Source of the DNA: Balneolaceae bacterium
Lineage (GTDB): Bacteria; Bacteroidota; Rhodothermia; Balneolales; Balneolaceae
Assembly (NCBI GenBank): GCA_034521445.1
Contig: JAXHMM010000011.1
Location: 1 to 64,000, forward strand
Direction: 5' to 3'
Length of the DNA stretch: 64,000 nt
The position numbers and the translations under genes were made by a program. The notes beneath the pieces are model-generated. The model was not told the origin of the DNA. It did not search any database and worked only from the letters and a program-made list of their open reading frames with translations. Positions 18,398 through 62,297 of this stretch are shown one piece after another; the stretch's first letter is position 1; each line of letters opens with the position of its first letter.

Positions 18398-19911
18398 TGC
18401 TCAGAAGCCCCTCCGACAGTTTCAGGCGACCGAAGATCGACTATCTCACGGTGCTGGGTATCCTGGGTTCCTTTATCTTCTTCCTGGGCTTTGCCCTGCT
18501 GATTCCCATGATTATCTCACTGCACTACGGGGAGGAGATATGGGACACCTACCTATACTCGGCGGGGATAGCATTTGGCTTCGGGGGACTGCTCTGGGTG
18601 CTGTTCAAGCCGCGCCACGAGCTGCGCATACGCGAGGGGTTCCTGGTAGTGAGCTGCACCTGGCTCTTCCTTTCGCTGGTGGGCGCCCTTCCGTTCGTCA
18701 TTTCGGGCATTCTCCCCAGTTACACCGACGCGGTCTTCGAAACCATGAGCGGGCTCTCCACCACGGGTGCCACCATCTTCAACGGGGTAACGGCCGATGG
18801 CTTCCAAAACCCGCAGATCGAGGCCCTGCCCATGAGCATCCTCTTCTGGCGCTCCCTGGCCCACTGGCTGGGCGGCATGGGCATCATCGTGCTCACCATC
18901 GCCATCCTGCCCCTGCTGGGCGTGGGGGGCATGCAGCTCTTCGCGGCGGAGTCGCCGGGCCCCACCACCGACAAGCTCACCCCGCGTGTGCAGGAGACGG
19001 CCAAGCTGCTCTGGATTGTGTACGTCTCTTTTACCTTCGCGGAATTCCTGCTGCTCTGGGCCGCGCCGTCGATGGACTGGTTCGATGCCCTCAACCACGC
19101 CTTCGCCACCATGGCCACCGGGGGCTTCTCCACCAAGAACGCCAGCATACAGGCCTTCGACTCGATGTATGTGGACGGGGTGATCACCCTCTTCATGTTC
19201 ATGGCGGGCATCAGCTTCGCCATGCACTTCCGGCTCTTCCGCGGCGACGCAGCATCTTTCTTCAACAACCGCGAGACGCGATTCTACGCGCTGATCACCG
19301 GCATCAGCATCCTGGTGCTCTCCGGATCCCTCTGGCTCTTTAATAACTACGACGTGGTCAGCGCCCTCCGCTACGGGGCCTTTCAGGCCGTGGCCATCGT
19401 GACCACCACCGGCTTTGGGACGGACGACTACGAGCTCTGGCACTCCTTCGGGGCCTTTTTCCTGTTTTTACTCTTCTTCACGGGAGGCTGCGCCGGCTCC
19501 ACGGGCGGAGGCGTAAAAATGATCCGCTGGATGATTATCATCCGCAACTCCCTGCGTGAGTTCAAGCAGATCGTCCATCCCAAGGCCGTGCTTCCCATCC
19601 GCATCGGCGACAAGGTGGTGGATTCGGACATCCAGCGCACGGTGCTCAGCTTTTTCGTGCTTTACCTGGTGGTCTTCGGCGTGGGGGCGCTGATTATCGC
19701 GATCATGGGCTACGACATGAAGTCGGCCATCGGGGCCAGTATCGCCTGCCTGGGGAATATCGGTCCGGGCTGGGGCGAGTTCGGTCCGACGGACAGCTAC
19801 GCGCATCTGCCCTATTTCGGAAAGTGGGTGCTCATTCTGATGATGATGATCGGGAGGCTGGAGCTGTTTACGGTGCTGCTGATCTTTACGCCTGCGTTTT
19901 GGCGTCAATAG
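18397..19911 (+). CDS. trkH: Trk potassium uptake membrane subunit TrkH
   Basis: K+ channel subunit of the TrkAH system. 504 residues with the four M1-P-M2 repeats of the family; filter-type segments are visible at LSTTGATIFNGV, FATMATGGFSTKN, VTTTGFGTDDY and CLGNIGPGWGEFGP. The C-terminus ends LLIFTPAFWRQ, as usual for TrkH. Its TAG stop is also the beginning of a long inverted repeat (19908-20010), so the transcript likely ends there. Confidence 0.95.
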   Translation: MLRSPSDSFRRPKIDYLTVLGILGSFIFFLGFALLIPMIISLHYGEEIWDTYLYSAGIAFGFGGLLWVLFKPRHELRIREGFLVVSCTWLFLSLVGALPFVISGILPSYTDAVFETMSGLSTTGATIFNGVTADGFQNPQIEALPMSILFWRSLAHWLGGMGIIVLTIAILPLLGVGGMQLFAAESPGPTTDKLTPRVQETAKLLWIVYVSFTFAEFLLLWAAPSMDWFDALNHAFATMATGGFSTKNASIQAFDSMYVDGVITLFMFMAGISFAMHFRLFRGDAASFFNNRETRFYALITGISILVLSGSLWLFNNYDVVSALRYGAFQAVAIVTTTGFGTDDYELWHSFGAFFLFLLFFTGGCAGSTGGGVKMIRWMIIIRNSLREFKQIVHPKAVLPIRIGDKVVDSDIQRTVLSFFVLYLVVFGVGALIIAIMGYDMKSAIGASIACLGNIGPGWGEFGPTDSYAHLPYFGKWVLILMMMIGRLELFTVLLIFTPAFWRQ

Positions 19912-20010
19912 GGATACTGCTATTCTTAACTGGAAATTTTATACATCCTCATTACCTGTCCTATCTACGACCGTATATAAAATTTAGGTTTAGAATAGCA
20001 GTATCCCTAT
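19908..20010. repeat. Long inverted repeat beginning at the trkH stop codon
   Basis: ATAGGGATACTGCTATTC at 19908-19925 is the perfect reverse complement of 19993-20010. The pairing continues imperfectly for about 17 more bases inward, to TTTTATA at 19937-19943 and its partner TATAAAA at 19976-19982. The result is a hairpin of about 35 pairs with a loop near 32 bases. It may be a terminator or a miniature transposable element; no long T run follows. Confidence 0.85.
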
Positions 20011-20201
20011 TGCCTTAATTTCTGTATTTCGCATAAATAATTTAGATTGAATAAGGGACGTACCCTCCTCCTATATCTGAAACCTGCCCGCGGCCGGTTC
20101 GTATCCGCCAAGGATTCTAGTGTAGGTGTGCATCCTGGTGTTTCCAGGCCAGTCCAACCATTCGGCAGCTAACATCCACCTCCATCCCACTCCTCTCTCT
20201 G

Positions 20202-20887: not shown

Positions 20888-21044
20888 CAGGTCCTTTTAC
20901 GGCCTAAATGGGTCATGCCATATCAAGATGAGGAATTGGGCAGGTATAGTCCCCTTCAGGGCCTAATTGGGTCATGCGATACTTGATAAGGCGGGATATC
21001 CGATATGAGCCAATTCTAGCCCTGAAGGGGACTATACCTGCCTA
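20888..21044. repeat. Large hairpin plus direct repeat ending at the RND gene stop codon
   Basis: Arm 20939-20970 (starting GGCAGGTATAGTCCCC) is the near-perfect reverse complement of 21010-21042, giving a stem of about 32 pairs with a 39-base loop. The outer end of the right arm runs into the TAG stop of the minus-strand exporter (21042-21044). A partial second copy of the left arm and loop lies directly upstream: GGCCTAAATGGGTCATGC near 20901 versus GGCCTAATTGGGTCATGC near 20960. It sits between convergent genes and could terminate both. Confidence 0.85.
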
Positions 21045-23549
21045 GTACCGAATCCAGTTCCTATCCTCCAGCCATTGAATCAACGCCGGCAGGAAGGTAA
21101 GCGCCGCCACCAGCGTCATGCCGATGCCGATCACCGCCATAATGCCCAGCGACTGCAACCCGGGGTGTGTGGTAAAGATCAGCCCCGAGAAACCCAGCAT
21201 GGTGGTCATCGAGCCGATAGTCACGTGCTGTCCTGTGCTGGAGAGCACCTCCCACATGGAGTTCCTGCCCTCGTCGCGGTAGCGGTGGGCCAGGTGAACC
21301 CCGTTGTCCTCCCCTATGCCCAGGATGGCCGGAAGCACCACCAGGTTGTAGAAATTGAACATCATGCCGGTCAGGATCATGATCCCGAAAAGCCAGAGCA
21401 GTCCCACCACCAGCGGCAGCATGGCGATGAGGGTCCACCGCAGCGAGCGGAAGGCGATCAGCATGAGCAGGAAGACCATGGTGAAGGTGGCGCCCACCAT
21501 CCAGGGACTCTCGCTGCGCATCAGATCCAGCATTTCAGCGGCGATGATGGAGGTGCTGGCGGCGTGGAAGGTCTTGCCGCTGTCCAAGGTCACTTCGCCC
21601 ACATCCTCCTTGAAGGCGATGGAATTACGTCCGTCGGCCAGTCCCACGCTTGGGTAGACGATCACGAAATTGCCCACCTCGCCCTCGCGCGTCACAAACT
21701 GGTTGCGAAAATAGTCGGGGATATCATCGATGCTCATGCGGGTCCGGGTCTGGGCGGCCCTGCGAAGGCGATCCAGCTGCGGGTCGTCCTGTCCCTGGAT
21801 GACGGGGTCGTTGAGCAGTTCGCGAATGTCCGATATGCGCTGGAGTTTAGCCGTGGCCGCAGAATCGGTGGGTGGAAAGCGCTCAGGCAGGGCTTCCACC
21901 TCGGCGATGGTGGGACTGGTGGTGTCGGTGCGCATGCGGTGGCGCAGTTTCTCCAGGATCTGGATGACCTCCTGCTGGTTGTCGGCCAGAAGGTAGGCGG
22001 GGTTGTGCTTGTCGCTGGTATTGACCCGATCGGTAATCTCGCGAAAAGACTCATAGCGGGGGAAGTCAGGCTCCAGCTCCCCGAAGTCGTACTGGAAACG
22101 AATATTGCTGGAAAAGATCCCAACCAGCACAGCCACGGCCAAACCTGACAGCACGATGGTGCGGGCCATCGGGAAGCGGCGGGGACCGGACGCCCTCCTC
22201 TCCACCGACTCCACATTCAGCAGGATCCAGTTGAACCGCTCGCATATCACCAGCAGAGAAGGCAGCACGAAGAGCATGCAGAGCAGCGCCAGGATGATGC
22301 CCGAGCCGGCGATAAATCCGAATTCCGAGAAGCCTCGGAAGCGCGCCAGCACCAGCACGTAGAGGGACAAGGCCGTGGTCAGCCCGCTCACCATGATGGC
22401 CATGCCCGTCTTGTCATAGGTACTCTGAAGGGCGTCGGGGATGTCCAGCCCGTCAGATCGGAATTCGATGTAGCGGGCGTAGAAGTGGATGCCATAGTCA
22501 ATGCCCATACCGAACAGTATCACGAAAAGCACCGAGGTCATGGTATTAAGCATGCCCAGCACGGCGTAGGTGATCCCGAAAGTCCACGAGAGGCTGATCA
22601 CCAGCGGCAGGCCGATGACCAGCACGGGCACCGGCACCCTCAGCAGATGGCTCCATACGGCGTGCGTCTGTCCCCTGCTACCCCCGCGGCGGTAGTGGAT
22701 GTATTTTTTGATGAAAAAGTAGAACATCACCAGCAGGATCACCGTGGAGATGCCGGAGGCGAAACTGCGGAAGACGTCATTCATGATGGAGTCGATCTCC
22801 TCCAGGTGACGCTGCAGTCGTCCCCCGTAGCGCACCTCCATCTGGGGATGATAGGAGGCCGGCTCCATGACGGCGGCCAGGGAGTCCACACTTGCGAACA
22901 TGTCGCGAAGGAAGCTCAGGTTGCTCTTCGAGCCGGTGGGATAGAAATGCACCACCATGACCGTGGAGTCGGGGCTCATGGGATACTCGTCGGGGATGAG
23001 GTCGTTGTAGCTCTCCTCAAAACGCTCCAGGTTCTGCTGCTGGGCAGCCTCATCCCCTTCCTCATCCAGTCCCAGATCCATGTAGAAGGGATTGGCATCC
23101 TCCTTGGCCTGATGGATTTCCGACTCCAGGTAATCGGCGATATCGGTCAGCTCGTTGTCGGTGGCGAAGTAGAGAGCGTTGTCCTTGAGCACCTCCACGT
23201 CCTTGCGGAACTCGGCCCGCTTGAAGAAGTAGTTCTCGGTGGCGGGATCGTAGAGCTTGAGGGCCTGCTGTATGAACTCATTGGCGAAGGCGCGGTTGGC
23301 CTCAAAGGAGGGCGACTGAATGGCCAGCTCCATGGAGGTCTCCCCGCCAACCGTCTGCTGCAGTCGCTCCAGTGCGATAACGTGGTCGTTGGTTTTGGGA
23401 AGTAGATTGGCCAGGTCGGTATCCACCTTGAGCTGCACGGCAAAGTATCCGGCCACCGCCGCCGTTACCAGCGCAAAGGCGATTACGCCGAAGGGATTCC
23501 GGTAGTTAAACCGGATCAGGGGACGCAAGTAATTCAGGATTTTGTCCAT
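21042..23549 (-). CDS. RND superfamily exporter (MMPL/HpnN-like)
   Basis: 835 residues with the duplicated RND layout: one N-terminal helix (about 18-37), a periplasmic domain, a five-helix bundle, then a second helix near 465, a second periplasmic domain and a second five-helix bundle. Fourth-helix-type motifs are GMGIDYGIHFYARY near 347 and GIGEDNGVHLAHRY near 746, with acidic residues expected for proton coupling. This type exports lipids or hydrophobic compounds (hopanoid and mycolipid exporters are relatives); the substrate here is unknown. It lies 75 bases downstream of the DUF3047 gene on the same strand. Confidence 0.9.
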   Translation of the reverse strand: MDKILNYLRPLIRFNYRNPFGVIAFALVTAAVAGYFAVQLKVDTDLANLLPKTNDHVIALERLQQTVGGETSMELAIQSPSFEANRAFANEFIQQALKLYDPATENYFFKRAEFRKDVEVLKDNALYFATDNELTDIADYLESEIHQAKEDANPFYMDLGLDEEGDEAAQQQNLERFEESYNDLIPDEYPMSPDSTVMVVHFYPTGSKSNLSFLRDMFASVDSLAAVMEPASYHPQMEVRYGGRLQRHLEEIDSIMNDVFRSFASGISTVILLVMFYFFIKKYIHYRRGGSRGQTHAVWSHLLRVPVPVLVIGLPLVISLSWTFGITYAVLGMLNTMTSVLFVILFGMGIDYGIHFYARYIEFRSDGLDIPDALQSTYDKTGMAIMVSGLTTALSLYVLVLARFRGFSEFGFIAGSGIILALLCMLFVLPSLLVICERFNWILLNVESVERRASGPRRFPMARTIVLSGLAVAVLVGIFSSNIRFQYDFGELEPDFPRYESFREITDRVNTSDKHNPAYLLADNQQEVIQILEKLRHRMRTDTTSPTIAEVEALPERFPPTDSAATAKLQRISDIRELLNDPVIQGQDDPQLDRLRRAAQTRTRMSIDDIPDYFRNQFVTREGEVGNFVIVYPSVGLADGRNSIAFKEDVGEVTLDSGKTFHAASTSIIAAEMLDLMRSESPWMVGATFTMVFLLMLIAFRSLRWTLIAMLPLVVGLLWLFGIMILTGMMFNFYNLVVLPAILGIGEDNGVHLAHRYRDEGRNSMWEVLSSTGQHVTIGSMTTMLGFSGLIFTTHPGLQSLGIMAVIGIGMTLVAALTFLPALIQWLEDRNWIRY

Positions 23550-41593: not shown

Positions 41594-41762
41594 AGGGGAA
41601 AAGCTGATGGCTTCGTTCGGGTTGTCAGAGCTAGAGAATATAGGAAAATTGCGCTACCAACCCGAATTCGCGAAGCCGAAATATTTTTACCTTTCCGCGC
41701 AGAACCGCTATTATAGAAGGGCAAACACGGCAGCAAGAACCCCCTCTTTACTCTCAGAAAGC

Positions 41763-42038
41763 ATGTTTATAGAACAGAAGAAACCCAGGGATTACGACTG
41801 CGGCTACAACCTGGACCTCATGATCGCCGCCCTCCCCCGTATCAAGGACCAGAAGAAGAGGCTGGAATACGCCAACCGCGCGGTCGGCCTGATCAAGCAG
41901 AGCCACCCCTCGTGGGTGGACGACGACGGGAACAGCGAAGATGCCTGGGACTACTTTTTCCAGCTGGCCGATTACGACCCCACCGCCTACGGCATTTACA
42001 ACCCCTACATGACGGGGGATCCTGATGAAGCCAAGTAA
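41763..42038 (+). CDS. Small conserved protein, DUF4290-like
   Basis: 91 residues from the ATG at 41763; upstream in-frame codons lack conserved character. It contains GYNLDLMIAALPRIKDQKKRLEYANRAVGLIKQSHPSW and DAWDYFFQLADYD, a layout like the Bacteroidota DUF4290 family (YGRNIQKM..., HLWDHL... in relatives). The match is from memory and only moderate. Its TAA stop is the first part of a GTC-repeat element. Confidence 0.6.
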   Translation: MFIEQKKPRDYDCGYNLDLMIAALPRIKDQKKRLEYANRAVGLIKQSHPSWVDDDGNSEDAWDYFFQLADYDPTAYGIYNPYMTGDPDEAK

Positions 42039-42126
42039 GTCTTTTAAAGTCTGTAAAGTCCAGAAGTCGAAAAGTCTTAAAGTCGGCGGACTTTCAGACT
42101 TTCTGACTTGTCAGACTTTATGACTT
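42033..42126. repeat. GTC/GAC periodic palindromic element, copy 1
   Basis: The left half contains GTC units spaced 8-10 bases apart in an A-rich context (AAAGTC type), from 42033 to GTCGGCG near 42087. The right half contains GAC units (GACTTT type) spaced 8-9 bases, to 42126. The halves are complementary, giving a large hairpin centred near 42087. It lies between convergent genes and provides the stop codon of the plus-strand gene and the last codons (SHKV, stop) of the minus-strand acetyltransferase. Confidence 0.9.
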
Positions 42127-42689
42127 AGAATATTGTCGGAGCGGCCGTTCGTGCCGTTGCTCGATTCCGTTTCCGTAAACTCCTGGCGTAGCAGGCTGTA
42201 GATGAGCTTGTCGCGGAATTCTCCCTTCTTGAGCACATGCTGCCGGAGGGTGCCCTCACGGCGGAAACCCAGGCTTTCCACATGTTCGATCCACGAAGTA
42301 TTGAAATCGAAGGCCGTGGTGGCCACCTTGTTCAACTCTTTCCGGTTGAAGCAGTAGCGCAGGATGACCTCCAGCGCCTCCAGATCCAGTCCCTTGCCGG
42401 CGTAGTCGCGGTCACCGATGGTGCAGTTCACGAAACAGCGCCGGTTGTAATGGTCGATGGCGTGGATGTCGACAATGCCGATGAGCTTGCCCGACTCCTC
42501 CAGGTGAATTTCGAATAGCTCGGCCGCCTCATTCTTCTCGTTGGCCACCGCCTTGATGCGCCTGAGAAAGTCATCAAAGGCTTCGTGCTCGTGGGGGTAG
42601 TCGGAATCGTAGTAGTTGAGTTCGGCGTCGTTATTCCACTTGTAGTGCAGCCTGACGTTCTGCAGGTCGAAGGGCTTTATCTCAACCAT
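42111..42689 (-). CDS. GNAT-family N-acetyltransferase (RimJ/SpeG-like)
   Basis: 192 residues from the ATG at 42687-42689, preferred because the fold begins MVEIKPFDLQNVRLHYKW; an upstream start adds 15 residues. Motif A-like acetyl-CoA loop is DRDYAGKGLDLEALEVILRYCF; NKVATTAFDFNTSWIEHVESLGFRREGTLRQ is the typical RimJ/L C-terminal half. The acetyl acceptor is unknown. The final residues SHKV and the stop are encoded by the GTC/GAC repeat element, so this tail is probably recent and not functional. Confidence 0.85.
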   Translation of the reverse strand: MVEIKPFDLQNVRLHYKWNNDAELNYYDSDYPHEHEAFDDFLRRIKAVANEKNEAAELFEIHLEESGKLIGIVDIHAIDHYNRRCFVNCTIGDRDYAGKGLDLEALEVILRYCFNRKELNKVATTAFDFNTSWIEHVESLGFRREGTLRQHVLKKGEFRDKLIYSLLRQEFTETESSNGTNGRSDNILSHKV

Positions 42690-42992
42690 GGTAGATGATA
42701 AGGGTAAGCTGAAAGATCGTCTGTCGTTTCCCAAAGGCTGATGCAGATGTTTTCAAGAGTGTCGTGAACCTGCCTTGGAAAAGCAAATTAATTTTGGGCG
42801 AGACGTGCCTCCAGGGCACCACAAGGTGGACCAGATCCGGACGGAAGGCCGCCCGGATCGGACATCTTCGCGTGTGGACTTCTTCCAATTTTCACTATAT
42901 TTTGAAACTTCTGAAAACAAATCGGGGTAGACCCCGGTGACGGTTTCCCGGAAGGCTCCGCCCCATGGTCCACCAACCTTCTTATCGGCCAG
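42690..42992. other. Divergent intergenic region before menF
   Basis: 303 bases between a minus-strand acetyltransferase and the plus-strand men operon. No gene is supported. The AT-rich part at 42895-42925 is the likely promoter zone; no convincing box was identified. Confidence 0.4.
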
Positions 42993-58148: not shown

Positions 58149-59360
58149 ATGGCACTCACCGCATACCGTTACGAACTGCCGCTTGCCCGTCCCTTCCGCA
58201 CGTCGGGACGCACCTGGCTGTCCCGCCAGGGCGTACTGCTGAGGCTGAAGCATAAAGACGTCACCGCCTGGGGGGAGGCCGCGCCCCTGCCCGGCTTTTC
58301 CCGGGAGACGGTGGCGGAGGTGGCGGCCCAGACCAGGGAGCTGGCCTCCGGGATGATGGAACTCTTTGAGGAGGAGGTCGACCTGCCAGGCGAGGCGGAG
58401 CGCGCCCTGCCCGGATCCAATACCCATCCCGCCGACATTCCTCCTCCCAGGGGCTGGAAGCTGGGCGATACCGGCGAGCCCTTCCTGACCGGCGTAAGCC
58501 GCTACCCACGGGTGAACCGCTTTCTCCTGGAGCACCGCGTGCCTCCCGCACTGCAGTTCGCCATCGACACCCTATGGACCGACTACCACGCACAGAGGGA
58601 GGGCTGCAGCCCCGGCACCCTGCTCTTCGGACGCATGCCGGACGCGATCCCCGTAAATGCGGTGCTCTCGCTGGGCGACGACCTGGAGGAAACCCTGGCC
58701 CGGGCCGGCAAGCTGGCCGAAGGCGGCTTCGGTACCATCAAGGTCAAGGTGGGGGACGAAGGCGGGTCGGGCATCGCCCTGCTGAAAGCCCTGCGCAAGC
58801 GGCATCCGGATCTCCGGCTCCGGGCCGACGCCAACCGGGCCTGGTCTCCCAAGCAGGCCCTGGAGGCCTTCGCCGCCCTGGAGGATGCGGAACTGGAGTA
58901 CTGCGAGGAGCCTCTCGCCAACTGCACGCCTGCCAGCCTGGAACATCTCGCTTCCCGGACGAAGGTGCCGGTGGCGCTGGACGAAAGCCTGACCGACCCC
59001 GCCTTCAGCGTCGATTTACTGCCGTTTGTGAATTTTTTTATACTCAAACCGATGGTCGCAGGCGGACTTTCCAATTTATTTGCAACAAAAGCCCTCGCAG
59101 ATGATCATGATATTGAAATCATCGTAACAAGCTCCCTGGAGGGGAGTACGGGACGGTCCATGACGGCGCTTATTGCCGGAGGCCTGGGTTCACGGGACTT
59201 CGCACACGGCCTGGCAACGGCTTCGGTGCTTGAAAAGGATTTTCGCAGCTCCCCGCCCGGCGGGGAGCCCCCCGCCGTCTCTCCGCCCCGGGGACCGGGT
59301 CTGCCACCGGTGGATCCTGACCTGCTGTCAACCCTAAGCACCGAACGTCTTGAGCTCTGA
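58149..59360 (+). CDS. menC: o-succinylbenzoate synthase MenC
   Basis: Enolase-superfamily dehydration of SHCHC to succinylbenzoate. 403 residues, longer than the usual 320-370. Catalytic elements: Lys in TIKVKVGDEG, metal ligands Asp in RADANRAW, Glu in YCEEPLAN, Asp in VALDESL, and the second Lys in FILKPMVAGG. Extra length comes from an insertion near 80-115 and a proline-rich C-terminal tail (PPGGEPPAVSPPRGPGLPP). Overlaps menE by 11 bases. Confidence 0.93.
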   Translation: MALTAYRYELPLARPFRTSGRTWLSRQGVLLRLKHKDVTAWGEAAPLPGFSRETVAEVAAQTRELASGMMELFEEEVDLPGEAERALPGSNTHPADIPPPRGWKLGDTGEPFLTGVSRYPRVNRFLLEHRVPPALQFAIDTLWTDYHAQREGCSPGTLLFGRMPDAIPVNAVLSLGDDLEETLARAGKLAEGGFGTIKVKVGDEGGSGIALLKALRKRHPDLRLRADANRAWSPKQALEAFAALEDAELEYCEEPLANCTPASLEHLASRTKVPVALDESLTDPAFSVDLLPFVNFFILKPMVAGGLSNLFATKALADDHDIEIIVTSSLEGSTGRSMTALIAGGLGSRDFAHGLATASVLEKDFRSSPPGGEPPAVSPPRGPGLPPVDPDLLSTLSTERLEL

Positions 59361-60921
59361 ACTCGAATTTCGGGAACACCTGGTCCCCACTTTTTCGCAG
59401 CCGGACGAGGATGCGCACTTCCTCGCCTCGGCCCGGGGCCTGTACACCTATAGCCACCTGGCACGTTTCGAGCGCTTCCTCCTGCAGTTTCTTAACGACT
59501 ACGGCTACGACCCCGGCGGGGAGCGTCCCGTCGGCTTTCTCTCCCACTCCAGCGACGAACTGATCTTCGCCCTGGCGGCCTGCTGGAGGCTGGGATTCAC
59601 TTTTTGCTGCGTGGACGCCAACGCCGCCCCCTCCGAGCAGAAAAAACAGCTGGAGCGGCTGAATCCCGGCCTGCTCTTCTACGACCAGGAGCACATGGAC
59701 CAGGCCCCGGTCACCGGCTCGGTGCCCATGTCCAATCTGAAGCTGGAGGAGGTACTGGAGCGCACCTTCAACATGACCACGAGCGTGGAGAAGCGACGGG
59801 AAGCTATCGACACGGAGGACGTTTTCGCAAAATTTCTCACCTCGGGCACTTCAGGACCTCCCAAGATCGTACCCCTGAAGCGCCGCCAGATGCTCTATGC
59901 CGCAAGGGCATCCGCCCGCAACTTCCGGCCCGATCCGGGCCACTTCTGGCTGCTCTGCCTGCCCCTGAACCACGTGGGCGGCATCTCTATCGTGCTCCGC
60001 TCCCTGCTCTACGGCAGCGGCATCTACCGCATGGACGGCTTCGACCAGGAGATGGTCTCCACTTTCCTCAACGAAAACACCCTCTTCCAGGCGGCCTCGC
60101 TGGTGCCCACCATGCTCAAGCGCCTGCTGGAGATCCCCGCCTTCCGCACCCACCGCGGCTTCAAGGCCATCCTGCTGGGCGGGGGACCCATCGACCCGGC
60201 GCTGCTACGCCAGGCCACCGAAAAGGGCATCCCCATCGTGCCCAGCTACGGGATGACGGAAACCTGCGCGCAGATCGCCGCCAACCACATCCAGAAGCCC
60301 AGCGGCGTCTACGTCCCCTTCCAGAGCGTGGGCGCCATCTTCGCGCCCAACGAGATGGAGATCCGTGACCGCGAGGGCGAAAAGGTGCCGCCCAACGACT
60401 CGGGCACCATCTGGCTGCGCGGCCCGCAGGTTTTCGACGGCTACCTGGACGACGGGGAGGGCGGCGCTTCTGCGGCCGGAGACGGGGACGATGCGCCTTC
60501 GCGTACCGGGGGCGAGGGCAGTTTCGACGCCGAGAGATGGTTCAACACCGGCGACTACGGGCACCTGAACATCCACGGGCAGCTCATCGTGGAGGCGCGC
60601 CGCACCGATCTGATCATTACAGGGGGAGAAAACGTCTCCCCCCACGAAGTGGAGAGTGCGCTGGTAAAGCTGGAGGGCATCGCGGAGGCGGCCGTCATCG
60701 GCCTGCCGGATGAGGAGTGGGGGCAGCGGGTGGTGGCGGCCGTGGTCACCCGCGACGGGAAAGAGCTGGATCCCGAGGCCGTTCGGGAAGCCCTGGGACA
60801 AAACATGTCGGAGTTCAAGATTCCCAAGGAGTTGCTGGCCGTCGACGCCCTGCCCCATACCCCCTCAGGCAAAATAAAAAGAAAAGACGTCATAGCACTC
60901 TTCAAGTCCAACAAGTCGTAA
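59350..60921 (+). CDS. menE: o-succinylbenzoate-CoA ligase MenE
   Basis: Adenylate-forming enzyme making OSB-CoA. 523 residues from a TTG at 59350. The P-loop is FLTSGTSGPPKIVPLK; other family motifs are YGMTETCAQIAANH, the Asp in FNTGDYGHL, RRTDLIITGGENVSPHEVE and the catalytic Lys in PHTPSGKIKRKDV. A short acidic insertion (about 375-395) precedes the hinge. The last codons (KSNKS, stop) are part of the second GTC/GAC repeat element. Confidence 0.93.
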   Translation: MSSELEFREHLVPTFSQPDEDAHFLASARGLYTYSHLARFERFLLQFLNDYGYDPGGERPVGFLSHSSDELIFALAACWRLGFTFCCVDANAAPSEQKKQLERLNPGLLFYDQEHMDQAPVTGSVPMSNLKLEEVLERTFNMTTSVEKRREAIDTEDVFAKFLTSGTSGPPKIVPLKRRQMLYAARASARNFRPDPGHFWLLCLPLNHVGGISIVLRSLLYGSGIYRMDGFDQEMVSTFLNENTLFQAASLVPTMLKRLLEIPAFRTHRGFKAILLGGGPIDPALLRQATEKGIPIVPSYGMTETCAQIAANHIQKPSGVYVPFQSVGAIFAPNEMEIRDREGEKVPPNDSGTIWLRGPQVFDGYLDDGEGGASAAGDGDDAPSRTGGEGSFDAERWFNTGDYGHLNIHGQLIVEARRTDLIITGGENVSPHEVESALVKLEGIAEAAVIGLPDEEWGQRVVAAVVTRDGKELDPEAVREALGQNMSEFKIPKELLAVDALPHTPSGKIKRKDVIALFKSNKS

Positions 60922-61028
60922 AGTCATAAAGTCAAAAAGTCCGCCGACTTTCAGACTTCCAGACTTTTCGACTTATCAGACTTTATGACTTTACAGACTT
61001 TATGACTTTACAGACTTTAAGACTTTAA
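60904..61028. repeat. GTC/GAC periodic palindromic element, copy 2
   Basis: GTC units every 8-9 bases from 60904 (AAGTC type) reach the centre at GTCCGCCGAC near 60939-60948, then about ten GAC units every 8-9 bases (GACTTT type) run to 61028. The right half is longer than the left because the 17-base unit GACTTTATGACTTTACA is duplicated. It lies between convergent menE and purD and provides the last codons and stop of both (KSNKS and ALKS). It shares CGACTTTCAGACTT-like centre sequence with copy 1. Confidence 0.9.
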
Positions 61029-62297
61029 GGCTTTGTGGCCGATGTCGCTACGGAAGTAGCGGTTGGAGAAGCGGACCTTTTCAACTTCTTCGTACACCCC
61101 GCTTATGGCCTGCTGCAGGCTGTCGCCCGAAGCCACCACGCTGAGCACGCGTCCCCCGTCGCTCACCAGCTTCCCGTCCCTCAGGGCCGTGCCGGCGTGG
61201 AATACCATGGCGTCGCCCGACACCTCGTCGATGCCGGTGATCTCCCTGCCCTTCTCGTAGTCCACGGGATAGCCCTCGGAGGCCAGCACCACGCAGCAGC
61301 GGTAGCGTCCGTCCACCTCCACCTCCTTCCCGTGCAGGCTGCCCTCGGCCGCCGCCAGCATGAGCTCCAGCAGGTCGCTCTTCAGGGCGGGCAGGATGGC
61401 CTGGCATTCGGGGTCGCCGAAGCGGCAGTTGAACTCCACCACCCTGGGACCCTCGCGGGTGATCATGAGTCCACAGTAGAGGATGCCCTTGTAGGGGTGC
61501 CCGTCGAGCTGCATGGCCGAGATGGCGGGCAGGATGATCTCCTTCTCCACCCGGGCCAGCATGCGTTCGGTCACAATGGGGGCCGGGCTGTAGGCGCCCA
61601 TGCCCCCCGTGTTGAGTCCGGTGTCCCCCTCCCCTATGCGCTTGTGGTCCTGGGCGTTGTGGATCACCTTGGCCGTCTCCCCGTCGGTGATGACGAAAAC
61701 GGAGGCCTCCTCCCCCTCCAGAAACTCCTCGATCACCAGGGTCTGCGCCGCGTCGCGGAAGCGCTCGTCTTCCTTCAGCTCGCCGAGCCGCTTCTCCACC
61801 TCGGCCTCGCTTTCGCAGATGAACACCCCCTTGCCGCCGGCCAGCCCGTCGGCCTTCAGCACGACGGGATATTCGCCGCGGTTGCGCACCCAGTCGAGGG
61901 CCTCGTCAAACTCCCCGCGCGTCCACGTCGTGAAGTCCGCCGTGGGGATGCGGTTCTTTTTCATGAATTCGTTGGCGAATTTCTTGCTGCCCTCCAGCTG
62001 GGCGGCGTACCTCGAGGGGCCGAAGACGGGAATGCCGCGCTCCTCCAGAAAGTCGGCAATGCCGTCCACCAGCGGCTGTTCGGGTCCCACAACCACCAGG
62101 CCCACCTCCTTCGATTCGGCAAAGTCGGCGACAGCCCCGAAATCGGAAAGAGAGAGGTCCACGTTGGTTCCCACGTCGGCGGTCCCGGGATTGCCGGGGG
62201 CGATGTAGAGGGTATCGAGCAGTTCGGAACGCGCAATGGACCACGCCATGGCATGTTCGCGTCCCCCGCTGCCCAGAAGCAGTACGTTGAGAGGCAT
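61017..62297 (-). CDS. purD: Phosphoribosylamine-glycine ligase PurD
   Basis: Second step of purine synthesis, ATP-grasp enzyme. 426 residues. N-terminal LLLGSGGREHAMAWSI, ATP-grasp KADGLAGGKGVFICES, LVIEEFLEGEEASVFVITDG, HKRIGEGDTGLNTGGMGAYSPAP and metal site EFNCRFGDPECQ are all intact. The final ALKS and stop fall in the repeat element. Overlaps tpiA by one base, which suggests one operon with it. Confidence 0.96.
   Translation of the reverse strand: MPLNVLLLGSGGREHAMAWSIARSELLDTLYIAPGNPGTADVGTNVDLSLSDFGAVADFAESKEVGLVVVGPEQPLVDGIADFLEERGIPVFGPSRYAAQLEGSKKFANEFMKKNRIPTADFTTWTRGEFDEALDWVRNRGEYPVVLKADGLAGGKGVFICESEAEVEKRLGELKEDERFRDAAQTLVIEEFLEGEEASVFVITDGETAKVIHNAQDHKRIGEGDTGLNTGGMGAYSPAPIVTERMLARVEKEIILPAISAMQLDGHPYKGILYCGLMITREGPRVVEFNCRFGDPECQAILPALKSDLLELMLAAAEGSLHGKEVEVDGRYRCCVVLASEGYPVDYEKGREITGIDEVSGDAMVFHAGTALRDGKLVSDGGRVLSVVASGDSLQQAISGVYEEVEKVRFSNRYFRSDIGHKALKS

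What the first reader, a model, noticed from the sequence alone, without database searches (positions are those of the whole stretch)
42033..42126. GTC/GAC periodic hairpin element encodes gene ends (copy 1)
Five or more GTC units at 8-10 base spacing are followed by complementary GAC units at 8-9 base spacing, forming one long hairpin with regular internal bulges. The element supplies the stop of the plus-strand gene and the last four residues and stop of the acetyltransferase. I know of no named repeat family with this architecture.
Basis: seen in the sequence. Interest (0 to 1): 0.75.

Follow-up and report, generated by a model that had tools for sequence, protein, structure and literature searches.

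The report
AAGTC-word arrays at gene ends
The hairpin is one of roughly 85 arrays in this genome built from the five-letter word AAGTC with near-random letters between the words, sitting flush against gene ends and often supplying the stop codon; arrays of the same word occur in a few unrelated bacterial phyla, and no description of them was found.

Summary
Copy 1 (42037-42126) and a second window copy (60904-61025) belong to a dispersed family: 428 triple-word matches in the 3.2 Mb genome against 0 in the reversed control, and about 44 arrays in 1.66 Mb sampled. Fifty-seven other genomes of the family have essentially none. The word is about 95% exact; the 2-4 nt spacers are not. Arrays are not copies of one another: no run of four spacers is shared. 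They show a head (AT-rich, at a gene edge) to tail (G-rich) gradient, lie flush with stop or start codons, and often supply the stop codon. Only about a quarter are two-armed. These share a centre, GTC-CRCC-GAC, favour convergent gene ends and fold strongly; one-armed arrays do not fold. Hence a 'hairpin terminator' reading does not cover the family. The same word arrays occur in Flavobacterium, Nitrospirae and Planctomycetes, where words are more conserved than spacers at matching sites. The own genome lacks RAYT-type (Y1) transposase and RVT_1 reverse transcriptase. Best reading: a REP-like gene-end repeat of new anatomy, a multivalent array of a selected word; its function and its factor are unknown.

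The parts
42037..42084 (+). copy 1, left arm: six AAGTC words, head at the stop codon of the plus-strand gene
42082..42091 (-). copy 1 centre GTCGGCGGAC (minus strand GTCCGCCGAC), shared by 9 of 10 two-armed elements of the unbiased genome sample
42089..42126 (-). copy 1, right arm: five GACTT words; encodes the last residues S-H-K-V and stop of the acetyltransferase
41607..42038 (+). gene whose stop codon TAA is part of the array; weak DUF4290 match (E 8.9e-6, 25.8 bits, below the 27-bit cut-off)
42111..42734 (-). GNAT acetyltransferase ending inside the array
60904..60941 (+). copy 2, left arm: five AAGTC words; encodes the end of the plus gene (..FKSNKS-stop)
60939..60948 (+). copy 2 centre GTCCGCCGAC
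60946..61025 (-). copy 2, right arm: ten GACTT words; encodes the end of purD (..KALKS-stop)
59350..60921 (+). AMP-binding enzyme, MenE-like, ending in copy 2
61017..62297 (-). PurD (GARS) ending in copy 2

Best explanation
The element is a two-armed member of a lineage-specific, dispersed gene-end repeat family whose building block is a polar array of the word AAGTC repeated every 8-9 bp with free spacers. SHOWN: copy number, word exactness, spacer independence, head-to-tail gradient, flush placement at gene edges, supplied stop codons, shared centre of two-armed copies, strong folding of two-armed copies only, absence from 57 other genomes of the family, absence of Y1 transposase and RVT_1 from this assembly, and the same word in other phyla. 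INFERRED: the word itself is what is kept, so each array is a multivalent recognition array for a factor that reads AAGTC/GACTT; in two-armed copies at convergent ends the words also pair, giving a helix interrupted by spacer bulges in transcripts of either strand, which would act as a bidirectional 3'-end block or stabiliser in the manner of REP/BIME elements. How new arrays arise is not known.
For: Words: 297 exact against 14 with one mismatch inside arrays. Spacer strings are no more shared between arrays than in shuffles, with none of four spacers shared, and adjacent identical spacers are at chance in this genome, so neither recent copying nor slippage explains the arrays. At sites matched between species in other phyla, word identity is 0.92-0.98, spacers 0.75-0.80, loops 0.69-0.74 and flanks 0.68-0.84. 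Gradient: G count rises and T count falls from head to tail in one-armed and two-armed arrays alike, 0 of 1000 within-array shuffles each. Placement: residual intergenic length 20 bp or less in 49% of arrays, against at most 10% in the simulations. Stop codons at arrays: TAA 22 of 39, genome 320 of 1297. Two-armed z about -7 in 10 of 10; one-armed about 0. Convergent gaps with arrays fold strongly in 67%, without arrays in 12%.
Against: No binding factor, transcript data or phenotype is available. One-armed arrays occur in both orientations relative to genes, which argues against a single RNA role. The nine-species Flavobacterium alignment gives little compensatory change (2 of 23 pairs, covariation term +0.49). 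Word conservation at matched sites is biased upward, because loci were found by exact words. Two arrays lie in frame in coding sequence (ribosomal protein S16 and an E2 acyltransferase), which gene-end function does not explain. Patchiness within the taxonomic family fits a selfish or neutral repeat as well.
Confidence: 0.4

Rival explanations
1. A selfish or neutral extragenic repeat with no host function, generated de novo at gene ends by an unidentified process that writes a fixed word with loose spacers, and tolerated where it can supply the stop codon.
For: Patchy distribution; gene-end and stop-codon placement as reported for REPs; in-frame arrays in coding sequence; no shared spacer strings; in Flavobacterium the same gap carries unrelated short-period repeats in other species.
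Against: Word conserved more than spacers at matched sites in three other lineages; regular head-to-tail gradient; no Y1 transposase or RVT_1 in this genome or in the array-rich Nitrospirae genome.
Confidence: 0.35
2. Bidirectional transcription terminators of convergent genes.
For: Two-armed copies: 7 of 10 convergent, z about -7; convergent gaps without arrays rarely have strong hairpins.
Against: One-armed arrays, the majority, do not fold and lie largely between same-direction genes such as def-fmt; no G+C-rich stem with T tract at the element; only about 6% of convergent pairs carry an array, so it is not the general terminator; in other phyla most two-armed copies lie between same-direction genes.
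Confidence: 0.17
3. REP/BIME elements mobilised by RAYT (Y1 transposases).
For: REP-like placement, stop-codon supply and inverted pairs.
Against: No Y1_Tnp match in the own assembly (97.8% complete) nor in the Nitrospirae genome richest in arrays; no sequence-similar copies beyond word and centre; no GTAG or CGTC-tagged 20-40 bp palindrome.
Confidence: 0.03
4. Slippage minisatellite (STRR-type tandem repeat).
For: Regular 8-9 bp period in tandem.
Against: Adjacent spacers identical only at chance (20 of 262) in this genome and never in the other lineages (0 of 24, 0 of 65, 0 of 11), whereas true heptamer arrays met in the control pattern are largely homogeneous; inverted arms with a shared centre.
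Confidence: 0.05

Closest known systems
REP/BIME elements (GTAG- and CGTC-tagged repeats; PMC3733652)
   Same: Dispersed, intergenic, next to 3' ends, between same-direction and convergent genes, often supplying the stop codon, sometimes inside genes, often in inverted pairs, found in several phyla including Planctomycetes
   Different: No tagged 20-40 bp palindrome; arrays of a 5-6 nt word with free spacers; one-armed majority in this genome; copies not similar to one another; no RAYT-type transposase in the genome
TAACTGA heptamer direct repeats (PMC4679880) and cyanobacterial STRR (from own knowledge)
   Same: Short-unit intergenic direct repeats at gene edges with patchy distribution across phyla
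   Different: Those are contiguous near-identical heptamers, mostly just upstream of start codons in one orientation; here unit length varies 7-10 bp, spacers are heterogeneous and arms are inverted
Inverted DNA-uptake-sequence pairs acting as terminators in Neisseriaceae (from own knowledge, not tested)
   Same: An inverted pair of a conserved word at gene ends forms a hairpin
   Different: Single 9-12 bp words, not arrays of 4-14 short words

Membership tests
REP (RAYT-associated) | high-copy, mainly extragenic, gene-end proximal | tested here: met
REP (RAYT-associated) | 20-40 bp palindrome with GTAG or CGTC tag, copies similar in sequence | tested here: not met
   (only word and centre are shared); tag definition
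REP (RAYT-associated) | Y1 (RAYT-type) transposase in the genome | tested here: not met
   none in G000 or G413; CGTC REPs are also reported to lack a dedicated transposase
STRR / heptamer minisatellite | contiguous near-identical units | tested here: not met
Intrinsic terminator | G+C-rich stem followed by a T tract | tested here: not met
   none found at the element
Intrinsic terminator | transcripts end there | not testable with these tools
   no transcript data
Conserved RNA structure | compensatory changes | tested here: inconclusive
   2 of 23 pairs, nine related sequences only
Rfam family | match to a curated model | tested here: not met

The most novel reading that the evidence does not exclude
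A new class of gene-end element in several phyla: polar, multivalent arrays of one conserved word (AAGTC/GACTT) with free, position-graded spacers, read by a conserved but unidentified DNA- or RNA-binding factor that marks gene boundaries, and produced without a RAYT-type transposase or RVT_1 reverse transcriptase.
Probability: 0.25. Interest if true: 0.82.

Novelty: new variant of a known kind. Interest (0 to 1): 0.62.

Why it matters
Extragenic repeats are normally explained by copying (REP, MITE) or slippage (tandem repeats). These arrays show neither signature, yet keep one word almost exactly, carry a direction-dependent spacer gradient, and sit on gene boundaries in unrelated phyla. Either an unknown factor reads the word, or an unknown process writes it. 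Both questions are testable, and cultivable Flavobacterium species carry two-armed relatives between genes of conserved operons (clpP-clpX, atpA-atpG, infC-rpmI-rplT).

Tried and rejected
Rfam: no match. RAYT/Y1 and RVT_1 as drivers: absent from the two array-rich genomes tested; abortive-infection-type reverse transcriptases may escape the RVT_1 model. Copy-paste dispersal: no shared spacer strings. Slippage: adjacent spacers not alike. Inverted duplication of arms: rejected for this genome and Nitrospirae (p 0.94 and 0.97 for the upper tail); arms do resemble each other in Flavobacterium (p 0.002) and Planctomycetes (p 0.0002). G-quadruplex tails: 0 of 44 arrays match the motif. CTGAA arrays in relatives, seen in the reversed control, are mainly homogeneous minisatellites. 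Veillonellaceae/Selenomonas hits of the genome scan look like tandem TTGACTT promoter boxes before a TATAAT and were set aside. Virus collection: only four contigs match, not followed up.

Full report
WHAT IS THERE. Copy 1 (42037-42126) is six AAGTC words, a centre GTC-GGCG-GAC, and five GACTT words; copy 2 (60904-61025) is five AAGTC words, GTC-CGCC-GAC and ten GACTT words. Both lie between convergent genes and encode their ends: DUF4290-like / GNAT acetyltransferase at copy 1, and MenE-like AMP-binding enzyme / PurD at copy 2. Both fold far better than shuffles (z -5.1 and -5.2). Rfam has nothing.

HOW MANY. In the genome (3.2 Mb, 18 contigs) the pattern of three words at 8-10 bp spacing has 428 matches, its reversed control 0; 57 other genomes of the same family have essentially none. 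In 1.66 Mb taken as stretches I find 44 arrays of five or more words, which would mean roughly 85 in the genome; the best unrelated 5-mer gives 10 clusters despite being about five times commoner. Ten are two-armed and 34 one-armed; some one-armed arrays are heads-out pairs separated by about 30-700 bp.

ANATOMY. Words are 297 exact to 14 with one mismatch. Spacers come from a loose vocabulary (GGA, ATA, TTA, GGG, GAA, TAAT and others); 7-bp units always carry CG and 9-bp units nearly always begin with T. No run of four spacers is shared between arrays, and shorter runs are shared at the shuffled rate, so the arrays are not recent copies of each other. From head to tail, G in spacers rises (about 0.06 to 0.34) and T falls (0.30 to 0.10), while unit length falls from 8.65 to 8.0; the trend holds separately in one-armed and two-armed arrays. 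Nine of ten two-armed elements in the unbiased sample share the centre GTCCRCCGAC (seven of nine further ones do too, but those were fetched partly because they matched the hairpin or centre pattern).

PLACEMENT. Arrays are flush with gene edges: 31 of 33 head-to-stop distances lie between -69 and +14 bp, and residual intergenic length is 20 bp or less for 49%, against at most 10% in simulated insertions. The array often supplies the stop codon: TAA 22 of 39, against 320 of 1297 genome-wide. Two-armed copies favour convergent pairs (7 of 10; Fisher p 0.0003 against background), one-armed ones do not (7 of 29; p 0.31). Two-armed arrays fold (z about -7) and one-armed arrays do not. Two arrays run in frame through coding sequence of ribosomal protein S16 and an E2 acyltransferase.

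ELSEWHERE. One Nitrospirae genome has 220 triple-word matches in 2.7 Mb, and there, as in Flavobacterium, the arrays lie mostly between same-direction genes and mostly within some 10-30 bp of them. In Flavobacterium they recur at the same position in different species, for example clpP-clpX, lipA-gapA and suf loci. At sites matched between species, words are conserved at 0.92-0.98 against 0.75-0.80 for spacers, though detection by exact words biases this upward. In the infC-rpmI gap of 30 Flavobacterium genomes some carry AAGTC-word hairpins, while others carry repeats of other short words (TAAGC, CAGT) or unrelated hairpins. This suggests AAGTC may be one dialect of a wider class; that class was not surveyed.

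MECHANISM. What is shown is a dispersed gene-end repeat family with a conserved word. That every word stays the same, rather than pairs co-changing, points to recognition of the word rather than to pairing alone; covariation in nine Flavobacterium orthologues is negligible. Copying by RAYT and RVT_1-type reverse transcription have no candidate gene in the two array-rich genomes tested. I therefore favour a selected recognition word in multivalent arrays, with a REP-like 3'-end role for two-armed copies, at 0.4, and a selfish or neutral repeat at 0.35. No tool here can show function.

COMPARISON. Placement, stop-codon supply and intragenic copies match what is reported for REPs (PMC3733652), but tag, palindrome and copy similarity are not met and no Y1 transposase is present. 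TAACTGA heptamer repeats (PMC4679880) are the nearest short-unit relatives in kind. Literature searches found no description of AAGTC arrays, in an open-access library that lacks most subscription papers.

Noticed in passing
window 60904-61025: Second copy of the element, longer right arm (ten GACTT words), between a MenE-like gene and purD, with the same centre in the opposite orientation.
   Followed up: yes
window 41607-42038: The plus-strand gene matches only positions 16-74 of the 174-position DUF4290 profile; it may be a shortened gene whose 3' part is missing where the array begins.
   Followed up: no
L196 3427-3551 and L208 4523-4623: AAGTC arrays run in frame through the acidic C-terminal extension of ribosomal protein S16 and through a linker between lipoyl domains of an E2 acyltransferase.
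   Followed up: partly
G000 contig C3 about 378060-378520 and 512540-512760: Beside one-armed arrays lie pairs of TTGTGA-N5/6-TCACAA palindromes (CRP/FNR-like) about 90 bp apart, possibly another repeat family.
   Followed up: no
window 20927-21054 and 19906-20012: Two other long inverted repeats (36 and 34 nt arms, 86% and 85% complementary) unrelated to the AAGTC arrays.
   Followed up: no
L289-L318 (Flavobacterium infC-rpmI and rpmI-rplT gaps): The same intercistronic gap holds hairpins made of quite different short repeats in different species (AAAGTC, TAAGC, CAGT, CCTCCCC), usually starting right at the stop codon.
   Followed up: partly
L033, L069, L078, L119, L138, L143: Veillonellaceae/Selenomonas matches are near-identical TTGACTTTTTGACTT..TATAAT stretches that look like promoters with doubled -35 boxes, not this family.
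   Followed up: partly
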